64,000 nucleotides of DNA from Haloarcula sp. CBA1129 (lineage in GTDB: Archaea; Halobacteriota; Halobacteria; Halobacteriales; Haloarculaceae): the NCBI RefSeq assembly GCF_008729015.1, contig NZ_RKSM01000001.1, positions 496,001 to 560,000 of the forward strand. Reading direction: 5' to 3'. Positions 30,090 through 35,928 of the stretch are shown piece after piece. Both the position numbers and the translations under genes were made by a program. The number at the start of each line of letters is the position of its first letter. The first letter of the stretch is position 1. The notes beneath the pieces were generated by a model. The model had not been told where the DNA came from. It did not search any database and saw only the letters and a list, made by a program, of their open reading frames with translations.

Positions 30090-30167
30090 GCCGCCTGTGG
30101 GAAACAGTGGTGGAATCCGATTCTAGATACTGCAGAGTACCGCCGCAATGAATGGAGCGACCGTCGT

Positions 30168-31391
30168 TCAGGTCGGTTCATCACGTTGCTCCTCGGAGCG
30201 CGGTCCCGGCCACTGTGGTGTTTCGAGGAGGAGGCGGAACGGCCAGATGACGTAGTACAGCGGATGCATTGGACCGGGGAGCGGGCAAAACTGGTACTCC
30301 GAGTAAGTCGGGTGAAGTGAGGAATGTAACAGCAGGAGCGGCACCAGCGCAGTGGCCGAATCGCTGGCAGCCAAGTAAAACCGAGCGGCCTCGAACTGCG
30401 TCGGCGGCTGTGGCGTCCCAGCAGCTAGCGACTCGACGACGGAATCGGCTAATTCGGAGGCGCGGTCGTCCGTGCGAAGGCGGTCCAGTATCGGCGCTGG
30501 GAGAGCATACCCAAAGACAACACGGGCGAGCGCAGCCCCCAGCAGTAGGTTCCGTTCGACGCCAGCTTCACGCGCCCGAGCGAGGACGTGTGACCAGTCC
30601 GTTTCCGTCGACTCAAGCGCCGCAACGAAATCACAGAGCCATTTCAGGAGATACCAGCGGTGCTTGGTTCCGTGAAAGGCCAGCACGAGCAGCCGGTCTG
30701 TTTGTGCAAGCGCCGGAAGCGGTTGGCCACCGACCGAGGCTCTGTCGCGGCGGTCCCAGAGTTCACTGAAGGATGTGGAGAACGGTCGTTCGGCGTCGCC
30801 TACGCGCCAGCGAAGTTCCACATCGAACTCCGGCCCCCGCATCTCGTACTCGTGGACGATGGCTTTCGTCACGGGACCGCCCAGCAGCGCAGCGTCGTCC
30901 AACCGCGGCGTCCCCCCGCGCCACTCGTATCCTCGTTCTTCCAGAACGTCCGCAGCAACGGGGATATCTTCTGGATGAACGAGCAGGTCTAGATCGTTGT
31001 ACTCACGCAGCGTTGCGTCGTCGTAGGCGGCGGCGGACAGCGCTGGTCCTTTGAACGGAATCGCGCGCACCCCGCGTGTCTCGAACCCCTCGACTATTTC
31101 GTGTAGCTCGGTCGTGAACGCGAGATTCCGCATCCGCCTTCCCTGTACTGTGTTGCTAAGTCGTGTCAATACGGCCTCTGGCACGGTAAACTCAGCACCG
31201 CTCTCGCGTGCCATCGCTTCCAGTCCCTCATAGAGGAGTTGTACGACGCCGTGATACCGGGCGAGTTCAACGACGCGGTCCCAGTTTAGCGTGGTATCCA
31301 GTGGGGGAGGGTCAGGGGAAGCGTTGGCGACGGTCGCGGTATGAGCACAGCTGGCCACCACCTGAAGTTCGGGTTCGACCTTTGTCAACAT
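30168..31391 (-). CDS. Nucleotidyltransferase-family protein of the RiPP cluster
   Basis: This 407-aa protein resembles the uncharacterised nucleotidyltransferase family (NTP_transf_5) that travels with lasso-peptide genes. The core reads IPFKGPALSAAAYDDATLRE at about 111-130, followed by YNDLDLLVHPEDIPVAADVL, with paired acidic residues for metal binding. A longer helical region follows and an Arg/Pro-rich tail. Its ATG overlaps the end of the kinase gene by 7 bases, so the two are coupled. In related bacterial clusters such a protein is thought to modify the peptide or act with the kinase. The specific reaction here is unknown. Confidence 0.82.
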   Translation of the reverse strand: MLTKVEPELQVVASCAHTATVANASPDPPPLDTTLNWDRVVELARYHGVVQLLYEGLEAMARESGAEFTVPEAVLTRLSNTVQGRRMRNLAFTTELHEIVEGFETRGVRAIPFKGPALSAAAYDDATLREYNDLDLLVHPEDIPVAADVLEERGYEWRGGTPRLDDAALLGGPVTKAIVHEYEMRGPEFDVELRWRVGDAERPFSTSFSELWDRRDRASVGGQPLPALAQTDRLLVLAFHGTKHRWYLLKWLCDFVAALESTETDWSHVLARAREAGVERNLLLGAALARVVFGYALPAPILDRLRTDDRASELADSVVESLAAGTPQPPTQFEAARFYLAASDSATALVPLLLLHSSLHPTYSEYQFCPLPGPMHPLYYVIWPFRLLLETPQWPGPRSEEQRDEPT

Positions 31392-32299
31392 GAGTCACTA
31401 TCGAGATCAGCCTGAATGCTGGCTGCGACAGCCGGAAGCGTATCGAGATTTCGCGGCCGGCGGAGTCGTCTTATATCTGTCATCTCAACGATCTTCCCGC
31501 AGGCATTGAAATTGGACACAGCTTGGCCGTCGGCTTCTAACGCGCCCAGCGTGTACGTGTTATCGACGAGCGCCATGACCTGCTCGTCCGGTCTGACTGG
31601 TTCCATTGCGATAGATTCGCCGTCTTCGAGCAGGTAGATGCGTTCTAGCGGCACTGGGGTCGCGGGCTGGTCGTGCCTGAGTCCGTAGAAGTGCCGAGGA
31701 CGCCCGCCATGGACCTGTTCTGGTGGTTCGACAGGGGGGTCAAACGCTTCAACCGCCTCCGGATCGAGTTTCATCGAGGGGTAGCCGCTCCGGACGACCG
31801 GCCCCGAATCGCCCAGCGTTATCGCAGCTACGTCGTCGCTCAGGACACGATGTCCGTTGAGCAGGCAGGCCATCGCAGTTGTCGTTTTTCCGACCCCTGA
31901 CTCCCCGACAAACGCCACAGCGCGCCCGTCGATGCTGACGGTACTGGCGTGCAGCACGAAGTAGCCTCGCTGATCCAGCAAGTGGTTCAACGCCGGGCCG
32001 ACCAGTACGTGTCGGAGGACTTCGCTTGGCACGTCCGAGGCCGGGTCTACCGCGATGGACTTCCCGTCGAGAATCCGGACCGTTGCGGCGTCGTATAACA
32101 GGTAGTATTCGCGCTCAGTTACCGCGTGAAAGGTCGAACTGGAGTCAGCCGACAGTGGACAAGGAATCCGCTCCTCAGTGATAGTGATGTCGGCCCGCCC
32201 GTCGGGCTCTGGCTCCGCGAGCGGAAGTTCCGGTACGTCGAAGGCAGAGCGGACCGTCAGCCCGAAGGCTTCATACGTAGCTGTGTTTGCCGTCGCCAT
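31385..32299 (-). CDS. HPr-kinase-like protein, candidate precursor-peptide kinase
   Basis: This protein (304 aa from the ATG at 32299) has a C-terminal P-loop domain of the HPr kinase/phosphorylase type: VGESGVGKTTT at 131-141, preceded by YFVLHAST and followed by HRVLSDDVAAI near 150-160 with an Asp pair. The N-terminal 110 residues, starting TYEAFGLTVRSAFDVPELP, resemble the extension found in lasso-cluster kinases rather than in true HprK. Homologues in paeninodin-type clusters phosphorylate the C-terminal Ser of the precursor, and the precursor encoded just upstream ends in Ser. In-frame starts at 32344 (ATG) and 32356 (GTG) are possible. No HPr gene lies nearby. Confidence 0.82.
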   Translation of the reverse strand: MATANTATYEAFGLTVRSAFDVPELPLAEPEPDGRADITITEERIPCPLSADSSSTFHAVTEREYYLLYDAATVRILDGKSIAVDPASDVPSEVLRHVLVGPALNHLLDQRGYFVLHASTVSIDGRAVAFVGESGVGKTTTAMACLLNGHRVLSDDVAAITLGDSGPVVRSGYPSMKLDPEAVEAFDPPVEPPEQVHGGRPRHFYGLRHDQPATPVPLERIYLLEDGESIAMEPVRPDEQVMALVDNTYTLGALEADGQAVSNFNACGKIVEMTDIRRLRRPRNLDTLPAVAASIQADLDSDSC

Positions 32300-32490
32300 C
32301 CTGCTAGAGTCCACCCTTTGTAGCTGTCCATTGATTCCATCCATGCTGAGACACACCCCGTCGACGACACCCCTGATTCATACCAGACCGCTTGACTGCT
32401 GTGGTGGATAAGAATGCACTCTCTACTCCAACACGCAGGCACGAAACCGGTGCGATGTCTCCACCGAACAGGGAGACTATCGAGTGTCGA

Positions 32491-32504
32491 TAAAAAGAGA
32501 AAGC
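32491..32504 (-). terminator. Possible oligo-T terminator after the precursor gene
   Basis: On the minus strand the sequence reads CTTTCTCTTTTTA, 29-42 bases beyond the precursor stop. Haloarchaeal terminators are often simple T tracts, so part of the transcript may end here, giving more precursor than downstream kinase message. Confidence 0.35.
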
Positions 32505-32532
32505 AGCTAGATGTATGGACCGTCAGCGGATA

Positions 32533-32631
32533 TTAGCTCCACTTCCCGTATCCGTCGTCGTGGTCCCACCAGTTCGTCTTTTCTTCGACAGTTCCGTACG
32601 TTTCGACCGACGGCGTTTCGTATTCCTTCAT
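32533..32631 (-). CDS. Lasso-type RiPP precursor peptide, 32 aa
   Basis: A 33-codon frame begins at the ATG 32629-32631 and ends with TAA at 32533-32535. GAGGTG, matching the anti-Shine-Dalgarno, lies about 9 bases upstream of the ATG. The leader has the lasso-leader pattern: Tyr4, Pro7 (Y-x2-P), Ser8, Val9, Gly13, Val15 and Thr19. If Thr19 is at the usual -2 position, cleavage after Asn20 gives the core WWDHDDGYGKWS. In that frame Asp falls at 3, 5 and 6, not at the ring positions 7-9. A cut one residue earlier puts Asp26 at position 7. The C-terminal residue is Ser, the phosphate acceptor in paeninodin-type systems. The gene sits between the B2 peptidase and the kinase, on the same strand. 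Confidence 0.75.
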   Translation of the reverse strand: MKEYETPSVETYGTVEEKTNWWDHDDGYGKWS

Positions 32632-32670
32632 GGGTTACCCCCACCTCTGGTTTCAGACATCAGTGTATTT

Positions 32671-32677
32671 GTTATAG
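32671..32677 (-). promoter_or_regulatory. TATA-like box for the precursor gene
   Basis: The minus strand reads ACTATAAC in an A/T-rich island 40-46 bases upstream of the precursor ATG. Archaeal spacing predicts a start near 32648 and a leader of about 17 bases that would contain GAGGTG. The precursor could thus be expressed above the level of the B1-B2 genes. Confidence 0.4.
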
Positions 32678-32723
32678 TATGTATTACTGTGGAGATTCTG
32701 TAGAATAGGGCGTTTACTATCCG

Positions 32724-33161
32724 TTACCCACGTTCTTCTCGTTCCGTGAGTGTTCGAAACCGTTCAAAGTCGGCGACATCCCCAATAAGGACATCACCGT
32801 TCGACTCGATCCAAGCGTGAGCCTCGAAGGTATCGGATTGCGTATCCACGCCGAAGCGAAGACAATGTGGCAGATCGTTGGCCACCAGCAGTGTGCTACC
32901 AGCGAGTGCTCGGTCGAGACAATCGTAGGTGCCCGGAAGGCGCGATCCCGCTGTCAGAACTGCCCAGCGTACTGACTCTGGTGACCCAGACTGACGATGA
33001 CACGGGAGAGCCTGAGAAATTGTGCCGACATATCGCTCTGCGTCCTCCAGCCCAGCGACTGCAAGCAGTACTTTGCTCGTAGCCATCAGTACCACTGCTT
33101 CACAGAGCAACAGTTTCTGCGCCCGTGACAACGCCCTGAACTCACGGAGTCGAGCTCGCAT
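32724..33161 (-). CDS. Lasso-type leader peptidase B2 (transglutaminase-like)
   Basis: This 145-aa protein of the Transglut_core3 family removes the leader from lasso precursors. The papain-like site is visible: Cys81 in YDCLDRALAGSTLL, His115 in FEAHAWIES and a candidate Asp at 128. The N-terminal helix LREFRALSRAQKLLLCEAVV is the typical start of B2 proteins. The ATG at 33161 overlaps the end of the B1 gene by 20 bases, and an earlier in-frame codon at 33188 is less likely. Length is normal for stand-alone B2 proteins. Together with B1 it forms the usual split protease, where B1 binds the leader and B2 cuts. Confidence 0.88.
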   Translation of the reverse strand: MRARLREFRALSRAQKLLLCEAVVLMATSKVLLAVAGLEDAERYVGTISQALPCHRQSGSPESVRWAVLTAGSRLPGTYDCLDRALAGSTLLVANDLPHCLRFGVDTQSDTFEAHAWIESNGDVLIGDVADFERFRTLTEREERG

Positions 33162-33438
33162 CAACCTTGATGAGTTGCTCCGCGGCAAGCGTGTCCAGAA
33201 ATCGCTTCACGTCAGTCGCCGCTCGGTCGCTGTCGACATCGTACTCTTCGACCAGCGCCGAGACGATGTCGGCTGGCTCCGTCGGTTCCTGAATCCGGTC
33301 CCAGATATCCGGGCCGGCCCCCAACAATCCTTGGTACCGTCCCGTCTTGTTGTTGAGCAGCACGACCTCGCCGTCGATTGTCGTTGTGACACAGTCGTCA
33401 GTTGCGACGACAGCCGATCCGGAATCTATCGCTACCAT
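33142..33438 (-). CDS. PqqD-like leader-recognition protein (lasso B1)
   Basis: This 98-aa PqqD/RRE-type protein should bind the leader of the precursor and present it to B2. It reads SAVVATDDCVTTTIDGEVVLLNNKTGRYQ..., the beta strands of an RRE, then IWDRIQEPTEPADIVSALVEEYDV and a helix, then FLDTLAAEQLIKVD. These are typical of PqqD family proteins in lasso and PqqD-kinase clusters. The ATG at 33438 gives the usual length; an open frame continues to 33495 and a GTG at 33465 is possible. It is the first gene of the minus-strand operon and diverges from the ABC exporter gene. Confidence 0.87.
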   Translation of the reverse strand: MVAIDSGSAVVATDDCVTTTIDGEVVLLNNKTGRYQGLLGAGPDIWDRIQEPTEPADIVSALVEEYDVDSDRAATDVKRFLDTLAAEQLIKVDASSTP

Positions 33439-33586
33439 GCAGATATCGGCGATACTCACATGGTTTGTTATGTCCTCTTTTCGTCGCCGCCACAAGCGTT
33501 ACTGCCGGTAAACGTTCCCTTCGGCCCTGTACTGCCCGACCGTAGTGAGTCGGTAACTATGATTCATAGAACCCGCATCCGGAACA

Positions 33587-35395
33587 ATGACTGATACTCC
33601 CTCCGTTAGTGAGAGATACGCATCATTGCGCCGCGTTGCGCTGTATCGTCCGGGTCTGACGGGGAGTATCGTTGCCGCTAGCCTCTTTGTCATGCTACTG
33701 GAAGGCGTTGGCCTCTCGTTCCTGTTTCCGATACTCGACGCCGCACAGGCGGGGCAAGGTCTCCCGCTTCAGGCGGACGGCGTCACTGGCCAGTTCCTTT
33801 CCGCGTACGCTGCTGCCGGACTGCCGCTCACACTCGAATTCCTGTTGCTCGGCCTCGCCTTTGTGATGGTCGTCCGATTCACGGCGTCGTTTACCGTGAA
33901 ATGGCTCGCAGCGAAGCTCACACAGACATACGAACGCGACCTCAAAAACCGGGCCTACCAACTGGCGATGGGCGCATCGGTCGCCTACTACGACGACAAG
34001 GGGTCTGACGACATCATGAATACGATTCTGACACAGACCCGGTACGCCGGCCGTGTTATCGGCCGTATCATCCAGTTCTTCCAGCAGGGCATCCTCTGTC
34101 TGGTGTACATCGGAATCGCGCTGGCTATCGCACCGATGCTGGCAGTCGGTGCGGCTGTCGCCCTCGGCGGCGTCACGGCGCTCATCAGATACGGCATCGA
34201 ACCCGGGTACGCTGTTGGCGACCGTGTGGCGACGGCAAACGAACAACTGCAGGAGACAACACAAGCTGGGACGCAGGGTATCCGTGAGGTGAAACTGTTC
34301 GGCATGCGCGACGGACTGCGTGCCGAGTTCCGGACCATACTCGACCGCTACACCTCGACCAGTGTCGCTGTTCGCCGGAATCAGGTCGCAATCGGAAGCC
34401 TCTATCGACTCTTCGTCTCGCTACTCTTGTTTGGGCTCGTCTACGTTGCAATCAGTTTCCGAGCGCTGTCCATCGCAGAGTTCGGCGTATTCCTGTTCGC
34501 GATGCTCCGACTCGCGCCCCGACTGAGTTCGCTCAACTCCACCGTTTACGCTATCGAGGGGGAGCTACCACATCTGGTTCGAACCCACCAGTTCATCGAC
34601 CGCCTCGAAACCCAGCAGGAGCCTACTGGCGGGCAGCCAGTCTCCGACCGAATCGAGGAAATCGTGTTTGAGGATGTCTCGTTCGCCTACGAGGACGAGC
34701 CAGTGCTTGCGGACTTCTCGATGACTGCCGAGCGAGGCGAGTTCGTCGGCATTGTCGGTGAGTCCGGTGGTGGTAAATCGACAGTCGTTTCGCTGCTCAC
34801 TCGACTGTATGTGCCAGACAGCGGTGATATTCTGGCGAACGGGACGCCGATTTCGACCTATGCCCTCGACGAGTGGCGTGACGCTGTCGCGATGGTTCGA
34901 CAGGACCCACATATCTTCAACGACACGTTACGGTACAACCTCACAGTCGGTCGGGATATCTCCGAGGAAACGCTCTATGAAGTCGCTAAAAAGGCCCTCG
35001 TCCTCGAATTCCTCGATGACCTCCCACAAGGGCTCGGCACGGTGCTGGGCGATGACGGCGTGAAACTGTCCGGCGGACAGCGCCAGCGGGTCGCACTGGC
35101 CCGCGCACTGCTGATGGATGCAGACATACTCGTGCTCGATGAAGCCACCAGCGACCTCGACTCGAACTTGGAACGGCAAATCCATCGAACAGTCGAGACG
35201 CTTGATGGGGACCAGACTGTGATCGCAATCGCCCACCGACTCTCGACCGTCTCTAACGCCGACCGCATCTACACCGTTGAGGACGGGCAGGTCACAGAAC
35301 AGGGAAGCCACGACGAACTACTCGACAGCGAGGGGACATACGCGGAGTTGTACGCGATGCAGGGAACGGTGGCCACACAGTCTTCCAGTGGCTGA
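33587..35395 (+). CDS. ABC exporter (transmembrane and ATPase domains fused), RiPP export
   Basis: This 602-aa half-transporter of the MsbA/McjD type has about six transmembrane helices in residues 20-310. The nucleotide-binding domain has Walker A GESGGGKST near 392, signature LSGGQRQRVALARAL near 494, Walker B ILVLDEATSDLD and the switch IAHRLST. There is no N-terminal C39 peptidase domain, so leader removal must come from B1/B2. It diverges from the B1 gene with a 148-bp gap. Location and type suggest export of, or immunity to, the peptide product. Similar exporters also occur in polysaccharide clusters, so the substrate is inferred from context. Confidence 0.9.
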   Translation: MTDTPSVSERYASLRRVALYRPGLTGSIVAASLFVMLLEGVGLSFLFPILDAAQAGQGLPLQADGVTGQFLSAYAAAGLPLTLEFLLLGLAFVMVVRFTASFTVKWLAAKLTQTYERDLKNRAYQLAMGASVAYYDDKGSDDIMNTILTQTRYAGRVIGRIIQFFQQGILCLVYIGIALAIAPMLAVGAAVALGGVTALIRYGIEPGYAVGDRVATANEQLQETTQAGTQGIREVKLFGMRDGLRAEFRTILDRYTSTSVAVRRNQVAIGSLYRLFVSLLLFGLVYVAISFRALSIAEFGVFLFAMLRLAPRLSSLNSTVYAIEGELPHLVRTHQFIDRLETQQEPTGGQPVSDRIEEIVFEDVSFAYEDEPVLADFSMTAERGEFVGIVGESGGGKSTVVSLLTRLYVPDSGDILANGTPISTYALDEWRDAVAMVRQDPHIFNDTLRYNLTVGRDISEETLYEVAKKALVLEFLDDLPQGLGTVLGDDGVKLSGGQRQRVALARALLMDADILVLDEATSDLDSNLERQIHRTVETLDGDQTVIAIAHRLSTVSNADRIYTVEDGQVTEQGSHDELLDSEGTYAELYAMQGTVATQSSSG

Positions 35396-35427
35396 GCGCT
35401 TCTCGCCGGGATGGGTGTCCCGCCGAA

Positions 35428-35928
35428 TCAAACGTCTCGACGCCGGCCCTTCGGCACCTGTGACCGGAGTTCGCCATAGACGTACAGACCAACGCCGACC
35501 GGTTCAGCCTCACCAGCAAGGTCGTGGGTGACGACCAGATACCCCCAGTCGCCGTCCCAGTCGAGTTCCCGGTCCTCGCCGGCCACAAACGCTCGGGCAG
35601 CGTCCTCATCGAGGTGGATGACGTTCTGGCTGGCGTGCTCGCCGAACCGCTGGACAGCCTCCAGCGTCGGCTTCCAGTGTTCTTGGCGCGTCCGGAGGAA
35701 CGTCATTCCTAGGCCCTCGATGTCAACTGGCGATGGCGGGCTGCCCTGATACAGCCACAGTTTGCCAGCGCCGCGTTCCCAGAAGGTGTACCCCTCGAAG
35801 GTCTCCGGCGGGACACCGAAGCGTTCGGCCCAGAAATCGAGGACTTCCGCACGGGTCGCTCGTTCGGGGTCTTCGCGCTCGTCGTCCGTTTCGGGGAGCC
35901 GCGTGAACTCCGTGCTCTGGTCACTCAT
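35428..35928 (-). CDS. PUA-like domain protein, split partner of the RNA methyltransferase
   Basis: This 166-aa acidic protein starts at the ATG at 35928. Its second half resembles the C-terminal PUA-like domain of bacterial RsmF-type methyltransferases: GYLVVTHDLAGEAEPVG, then VGLYVYGELRSQVPKGRRR matches the pattern where a Gly-rich strand is followed by LKN-x-PK-x-R. The ATG overlaps the methyltransferase stop as ATGA, so both proteins are probably made together and bind as a complex. The RNA-binding role is inferred from that similarity. Family members annotated as a domain of unknown function occur in haloarchaea. A longer frame to 36036 is a shadow. Confidence 0.75.
   Translation of the reverse strand: MSDQSTEFTRLPETDDEREDPERATRAEVLDFWAERFGVPPETFEGYTFWERGAGKLWLYQGSPPSPVDIEGLGMTFLRTRQEHWKPTLEAVQRFGEHASQNVIHLDEDAARAFVAGEDRELDWDGDWGYLVVTHDLAGEAEPVGVGLYVYGELRSQVPKGRRRDV

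What the first reader, a model, noticed from the sequence alone, without database searches (positions are those of the whole stretch)
30168..35395. Archaeal RiPP gene cluster of the lasso-peptide type
Five minus-strand genes and a divergent exporter form one locus: PqqD-like B1 (33142-33438), transglutaminase-like B2 (32724-33161), a precursor (32533-32631), an HPr-kinase-like protein (31385-32299), a nucleotidyltransferase (30168-31391) and an ABC exporter (33587-35395). B1, B2, kinase, nucleotidyltransferase and exporter are all known companions of bacterial lasso peptides such as paeninodin. I know of no characterised haloarchaeal product from such a cluster. The function of the locus is inference; the domain identities are seen in the sequence.
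Basis: partly seen in the sequence, partly recalled or inferred. Interest (0 to 1): 0.88.

Follow-up and report, generated by a model that had tools for sequence, protein, structure and literature searches.

The report
Lasso-type peptide cluster lacking its cyclase
A salt-loving archaeon carries a highly conserved gene set that looks like the machinery for knotted 'lasso' peptides, but the enzyme that ties the knot is missing and the peptide looks too short to knot, so it probably makes a small, unknotted, chemically tagged peptide found in about a third of Haloarcula species.

Summary
The ORF MKEYETPSVETYGTVEEKTN|WWDHDDGYGKWS has an exactly spaced lasso leader (Y-17, P-14, V-12, T-2). It is identical in nine of ten close Haloarcula genomes (one Ser-to-Asp change in the tenth), with pN/pS 0.04 against 0.2 for the enzymes.

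The 'lasso' conclusion fails on the family's defining step. The locus has no lasso cyclase, and three relatives carrying it have no full-length asparagine-synthetase-like protein at all. The 12-residue core has no Asp/Glu at positions 7-9.

Cyclase-less loci form a coherent haloarchaeal lineage in the kinase and B2 trees. Their cores are short (median 12 against 26 aa); all 20 distinct ones contain Tyr, only 9 have Ser/Thr. Paeninodin-like C-terminal Ser phosphorylation therefore cannot be the general chemistry. Most Haloarcula without the locus have an empty site.

Best explanation: a lasso-derived RiPP pathway without cyclisation, exporting a short linear peptide tagged by kinase and nucleotidyltransferase. 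The tag site is unproven. An H. hispanica cluster of this kind was flagged before (PMC10093198) without the precursor or the missing cyclase. New variant of a known kind.

The parts
30168..31391 (-). Nucleotidyltransferase-like protein (407 aa), PsmN-type family NTP_transf_5
   Evidence: PF14907 219.5 bits; DLD active-site motif invariant in ten relatives
31385..32299 (-). HPr-kinase-like precursor kinase (304 aa)
   Evidence: PF07475 28.3 bits, below cut-off; fold match to PEPCK/HprK; His117, Lys138, Asp155, Asp156 invariant
32533..32631 (-). Precursor peptide gene, MKEYETPSVETYGTVEEKTNWWDHDDGYGKWS
   Evidence: Identical protein in nine of ten close Haloarcula, pN/pS 0.041
32572..32631 (-). 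Leader region (residues 1-20), Y-17, P-14, V-12, T-2
   Evidence: Spacing read against the motif in PMC10368454
32536..32571 (-). Predicted core WWDHDDGYGKWS (residues 21-32); cleavage site inferred
   Evidence: Follows from T(-2) spacing; no Asp/Glu at 7-9
32724..33161 (-). B2 leader peptidase (145 aa)
   Evidence: NF033537 82.9 bits, cut-off 33; Cys81 and His115 invariant
33142..33438 (-). B1 RiPP recognition protein (98 aa)
   Evidence: PF05402 64 bits; TbiB1 5v1u E=4e-13
33587..35395 (+). ABC exporter, divergent to the operon (602 aa)
   Evidence: ABC_tran 106 bits, ABC_membrane 41 bits
32664..32676 (-). Conserved TATAACAAATACA upstream of the precursor, candidate promoter element
   Evidence: Conserved in the alignment of eleven Haloarcula; function is a guess
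30090..35427 (.). Whole cassette between DUF790 (ends 30089) and DUF7122 (stop at 35428)
   Evidence: Most Haloarcula without the cassette have DUF790 and DUF7122 adjacent

Best explanation
The locus is a lasso-derived RiPP pathway that works without cyclisation. B1 binds the leader (YxxPxV) of the 32-residue precursor. The HPr-kinase-like enzyme phosphorylates the peptide, and the nucleotidyltransferase-like enzyme may extend that phosphate with a hexose (as PsmN does) or a nucleotide. B2 cuts one residue after Thr19, i.e. after Asn20, releasing WWDHDDGYGKWS, and the ABC exporter sends out the short linear tagged peptide. Shown by computation: gene identities, intact catalytic motifs, leader spacing, strong constraint on the peptide, absence of a cyclase, coherence of the cyclase-less lineage. 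Inferred from characterised bacterial homologues: leader binding, cleavage, phosphorylation, hexose transfer, export. Open: the modified residue. Tyr is the only hydroxyl residue present in all 20 cyclase-less cores and is my preferred general site; the C-terminal Ser remains possible where it exists. The near invariance of the peptide fits a genus-wide signal or metal-binding peptide better than a diversifying bacteriocin, but the biological role is a guess.
For: No PF00733 gene in or beside the cassette. Carriers G020, G027 and G036 have no full-length asparagine-synthetase-like protein. The window genome's three full-length ones keep the glutaminase Cys (MCGI), sit far from the locus and, judged by eye, lie among glycan-type genes. 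The remaining 390-aa PF00733 protein is in 32 of 32 Haloarcula, with or without the locus. Cyclase-less loci group apart from the main cyclase-bearing loci in the kinase tree, also with bacterial outgroups, and in the B2 tree, except L082. Cyclase-less cores are 8-26 aa (median 12) with Tyr in 20/20; cyclase-bearing cores are 22-32 aa, median 26. Precursor pN/pS 0.041 against 0.215 (B2) and 0.194 (kinase). Catalytic motifs intact. Kinase and nucleotidyltransferase homologues phosphorylate and hexosylate lasso peptides (PMC9266682, PMC10368454, PMC8498205).
Against: No product, transcript or enzyme activity was observed. The cleavage site is inferred from leader spacing. Asp/Glu at 7-9 does not separate the two haloarchaeal classes (8/20 against 13/30); core length does, but the rows are not independent. 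L043 has an asparagine synthetase B-like gene beside its precursors. No HPr-kinase-like enzyme acting on Tyr is known to me, and BsfK did not accept Tyr in place of Ser3 (PMC10368454). Tree support for the cyclase-less group is moderate (SH-aLRT about 84-92, quick searches).
Confidence: 0.72

Rival explanations
1. A true lasso (or macrolactam) peptide is made, with the ring closed by a PF00733 protein encoded elsewhere in the genome, for example one of the MCGI asparagine synthetases or the 390-aa protein.
For: All other parts of the lasso pathway are present; the window genome has three full-length PF00733 proteins; Natronococcus pandeyae has a cyclase-bearing locus besides its cyclase-less one.
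Against: G020, G027 and G036 carry the locus without any full-length PF00733 protein; the 390-aa protein is universal in the genus; the full-length ones keep the glutaminase Cys; the core lacks Asp/Glu at 7-9 and is 12 residues long.
Confidence: 0.1
2. Paeninodin-like tailoring without the ring: the kinase phosphorylates the C-terminal Ser32 and the nucleotidyltransferase decorates that phosphate.
For: The window precursor ends in Ser, as do nine of eleven Haloarcula precursors; PadeK, ThcoK and SyanK act on a C-terminal Ser and PsmN adds hexose to it (PMC9266682, PMC8498205).
Against: G027 and G036 end in Asp yet keep kinase and nucleotidyltransferase; only 9 of 20 cyclase-less cores contain any Ser or Thr.
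Confidence: 0.35
3. A decayed lasso cluster that lost its cyclase and is on its way out.
For: G010 shows a deletion scar, and locus L074 has a stop in the kinase match and a split exporter.
Against: In Haloarcula all genes are intact, catalytic residues are kept and the precursor is under stronger constraint (pN/pS 0.041) than the enzymes; the cyclase-less state is shared by a deep lineage over several genera.
Confidence: 0.05
4. The leader-processing enzymes act on a different, unrecognised substrate and the 32-codon ORF is regulatory or incidental.
For: The ORF scores below cut-off on all family models; its synonymous sites are also unusually conserved (pS 0.124 against 0.30).
Against: The exact lasso leader motif, its position inside the operon, and homologous leaders in nearly every related locus where one could be read.
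Confidence: 0.05

Closest known systems
Paeninodin / pseudomycoidin-type phosphorylated lasso peptide clusters
   Same: Precursor with YxxPx(L/V) and T(-2) leader, split B1 and B2, HPr-kinase-like kinase, nucleotidyltransferase, ABC exporter; C-terminal Ser in the window precursor
   Different: No lasso cyclase, 12-residue core without a ring acceptor at 7-9, C-terminal Ser not conserved in relatives
Cyclase-bearing haloarchaeal lasso-type loci (e.g. L037, L077, L089; second precursors in L076, L081, L203 have G1...D8 cores)
   Same: Homologous B1, B2, kinase, exporter and often nucleotidyltransferase, about 25-50% identical
   Different: They carry a cyclase of about 630 aa and cores of 22-32 aa; their kinases and B2 form a separate group in the trees
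RRE-dependent RiPP cluster reported in Haloarcula hispanica Boch-4 (PMC10093198)
   Same: antiSMASH cluster with B1, B2 and kinase in the same genus, very likely the orthologous locus
   Different: Precursor, nucleotidyltransferase, missing cyclase and evolutionary pattern were not described there
bsf cluster of Bradymonas sediminis (PMC10368454)
   Same: B1, B2, kinase and nucleotidyltransferase together; a kinase acting on a residue other than the C-terminus (Ser3)
   Different: It has a cyclase and an Asp8 ring acceptor; penultimate leader residue is Ile
HPr-rel-A system (NCBIfam TIGR04352 / TIGR04353)
   Same: HPr-kinase-related kinase together with a PqqD-like protein
   Different: Kinase 38 bits against a cut-off of 200, PqqD_rel_X 18.7 against 35; not a member

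Membership tests
Lasso peptide biosynthetic cluster | Lasso cyclase (C protein, PF00733 asparagine-synthetase-like) | tested here: not met
   None in or beside the cassette; three relatives carry the locus without any full-length PF00733 protein; other candidates are MCGI-type or universal in the genus
Lasso peptide biosynthetic cluster | Asp/Glu ring acceptor at core position 7-9 | tested here: not met
   Core WWDHDDGYGKWS has G, Y, G at 7-9, assuming cleavage one residue after Thr(-2)
Lasso peptide biosynthetic cluster | Leader with Y(-17), P(-14), L/V(-12), T(-2) | tested here: met
   Exact spacing (motif from PMC10368454)
Lasso peptide biosynthetic cluster | B1 recognition protein | tested here: met
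   PF05402 64 bits; TbiB1 is the closest solved chain
Lasso peptide biosynthetic cluster | B2 leader peptidase | tested here: met
   NF033537 82.9 bits, cut-off 33; Cys and His invariant
Lasso peptide biosynthetic cluster | Threaded macrolactam product | not testable with these tools
   Needs mass spectrometry or NMR
Phosphorylated (paeninodin-type) lasso subgroup | HPr-kinase-like kinase with His-Lys-Asp-Asp motif | tested here: met
   His117, Lys138, Asp155, Asp156 invariant in alignment A3
Phosphorylated (paeninodin-type) lasso subgroup | Conserved C-terminal Ser on the precursor | tested here: inconclusive
   Ser in 9 of 11 Haloarcula, Asp in 2; not conserved in other cyclase-less loci
Pseudomycoidin-type glycosylation | PsmN-like enzyme adding hexose to the phosphorylated residue | not testable with these tools
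   PF14907 family membership met; the activity needs an assay
HPr-rel-A system | TIGR04352 kinase and TIGR04353 PqqD above cut-off | tested here: not met
   38.4 of 200 and 18.7 of 35 bits

The most novel reading that the evidence does not exclude
A distinct class of archaeal RiPP: short linear peptides made by lasso-pathway enzymes without a cyclase, in which the HPr-kinase-like enzyme phosphorylates Tyr and the nucleotidyltransferase adds a sugar or nucleotide to the phosphotyrosine, used in Haloarcula as a nearly invariant genus-wide signal or metal-binding peptide.
Probability: 0.22. Interest if true: 0.82.

Novelty: new variant of a known kind. Interest (0 to 1): 0.62.

Why it matters
No characterised lasso-type product from an archaeon turned up in the papers searched here. 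This locus suggests that lasso leader recognition and cleavage have been uncoupled from knot formation in a coherent archaeal lineage, which would let the roles of B1/B2, kinase and nucleotidyltransferase be tested without a cyclase. Genome-mining rules that require the cyclase would miss or mislabel such clusters.

Tried and rejected
Cyclase in the flanks: neighbours are an XPB-like helicase, DUF790, DUF7122 and an RsmB/F-like methyltransferase. Cyclase elsewhere in the window genome: candidates rejected by MCGI start and position. The 390-aa PF00733 protein: universal in the genus. The L043 asparagine-synthetase gene as a lasso cyclase: 136 and 89 bits on the haloarchaeal cyclase profile, where most intact cyclases of other haloarchaeal loci score about 600-1080, and it begins MCGIAG. 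Asp/Glu at 7-9 as a class separator: it does not separate. HPr-rel-A membership: far below cut-off. The B2 fold search gave no significant match, with weak transglutaminase-like hits on top. Solved-structure searches for B2 and the nucleotidyltransferase found nothing. Two primary papers (Zhu 2016, Zyubko 2019) were not held; reviews were used instead. A text search for cyclase-less lasso clusters found no paper. Four further B2 loci added three cyclase-bearing ones with long cores and one already seen.
Full report
OBSERVATION. The six genes lie at the stated places. B2 scores 82.9 bits on the curated lasso B2 model (cut-off 33), B1 64 bits on PqqD, the nucleotidyltransferase 219.5 bits on PF14907. 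The kinase reaches only 28 bits on the HPr-kinase domain, below cut-off, but its AlphaFold model (pLDDT 90) matches PEPCK and HPr kinases, and the lasso-kinase motif His-Lys-Asp-Asp described in PMC9266682 and PMC10368454 is invariant in an alignment of eleven relatives. B1's closest solved relatives are lasso recognition proteins.

PRECURSOR. The 32-codon ORF encodes MKEYETPSVETYGTVEEKTNWWDHDDGYGKWS. Tyr4, Pro7, Val9 and Thr19 sit at exactly -17, -14, -12 and -2 of a lasso leader, so cleavage is expected after Asn20. Family models score below cut-off, but the protein is identical in nine of ten close Haloarcula genomes, the tenth (G036) ending in Asp. In H. salina (G027) the core is WWHDDGYGKWD. 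Pairwise pN/pS is 0.041, against 0.215 for B2 and 0.194 for the kinase. It is a real, strongly constrained coding sequence.

MISSING CYCLASE. No PF00733 protein is in the cassette or next to it. The window genome has three full-length PF00733 proteins, all starting MCGI (glutaminase Cys present) and far from this locus; their neighbourhoods look like glycan clusters by eye. A 390-aa PF00733 protein is present in all 32 Haloarcula searched, with or without the locus. G020, G027 and G036 carry the locus and have only that protein plus short partial matches.

RELATIVES. B2 occurs in 23 of 146 genomes of the family and 33 of 391 sampled in the class. Most other haloarchaeal loci have a cyclase of about 630 aa within a few kilobases. 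Cyclase-less loci include the window, ten other Haloarcula, G123, G396, G400 (two), G451 and one of two loci in Natronococcus pandeyae; G129, L096 and L097 lie on short contigs; G119 has an asparagine-synthetase-like gene instead. In the kinase and B2 trees the cyclase-less loci, except L082, group apart from the main cyclase-bearing group (two label changes, 0 of 500 shuffles as low). Bacterial outgroups do not break the kinase grouping. Most bacterial kinase relatives sit beside a cyclase; Dyadobacter and an Opitutia MAG do not within the DNA held. Named records identify H. amylolytica, H. vallismortis, H. argentinensis, H. sebkhae and H. salina among carriers.

CORE PEPTIDES. Twenty distinct cyclase-less cores are 8-26 residues long (median 12); all contain Tyr and 9 contain Ser or Thr. 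Thirty cyclase-bearing cores are 22-32 residues (median 26); all contain Ser or Thr (sequences). The rows are related, so the p-value for length (2e-8) overstates the evidence. Asp/Glu at 7-9 is found in 8 of 20 and 13 of 30, so it does not separate the classes; it is absent from all three Haloarcula cores. Core boundaries rest on leader spacing.

GENOMIC SETTING. The cassette lies between DUF790 and DUF7122. Most Haloarcula lacking it have these two genes adjacent; G014, G018 and G026 show short intergenic empty sites, and G010 keeps a nucleotidyltransferase fragment joined to an exporter remnant, a deletion scar. The cassette is a discrete unit that has been lost at least once.

MECHANISM. 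B1 binds the leader, the kinase modifies the peptide, the nucleotidyltransferase extends the phosphate, B2 removes the leader, and the exporter releases a short linear peptide. The enzymology is inferred from bacterial homologues: PadeK and ThcoK phosphorylate a C-terminal Ser, BsfK a Ser3, PsmN adds hexose. The C-terminal Ser cannot be the general site, because it is Asp in two Haloarcula and absent in many relatives. Tyr is the only hydroxyl residue in all cores, which makes it my preferred general site, but BsfK rejected Tyr and no precedent is known to me.

PRIOR WORK. An RRE-dependent RiPP cluster with B1, B2 and kinase was reported in H. hispanica Boch-4 (PMC10093198). RRE-Finder noted that about half of discrete lasso-type recognition proteins do not co-occur with peptidase and cyclase (PMC7470986). 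A survey of archaeal RiPPs mentions lassopeptide clusters but characterised lanthipeptides (PMC12144867). None of these describes a cyclase-less kinase/nucleotidyltransferase lineage or this precursor. Only open-licence papers were searchable.

VERDICT. The locus is best read as a new, cyclase-less variant of the lasso pathway.

Noticed in passing
L182 (G010) 311-1471: Haloarcula genome with a deletion scar: a nucleotidyltransferase fragment joined to the end of the exporter gene, with B1, B2, precursor and kinase gone.
   Followed up: partly
L043 11228-13201 (G119): Asparagine synthetase B-like gene (MCGIAG start, apparently frameshifted) between three tandem precursors and the exporter of a cyclase-less-type locus.
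   Followed up: partly
L076 15329, L081 6621, L203 5037: Haloarchaeal precursors with canonical G1...D8 cores (HFS(R/A)VDGNSGTTGNRG) beside a second, divergent cyclase in addition to the usual one.
   Followed up: no
L073 15009-17023 (G400): Five precursors with nearly identical leaders and very short divergent cores (8-13 aa) in one cyclase-less locus.
   Followed up: partly
L074 8049-12444 (G400): Second cyclase-less locus in G400 with an internal stop in the kinase match and an exporter split over two frames, probably decaying.
   Followed up: no
L082 11747 (G451): Precursor whose core is a long run of glycines followed by PIGYGQ, in a cyclase-less locus that branches apart from the others.
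   Followed up: no
32376-32425: Noncoding stretch between precursor and kinase conserved in ten close Haloarcula but not in H. salina; perhaps the kinase promoter.
   Followed up: no
L034 and L196 (G029): A Haloarcula species with a conventional cyclase-bearing lasso-type locus elsewhere in its genome; its DUF790-DUF7122 junction shows no match to this cassette.
   Followed up: partly
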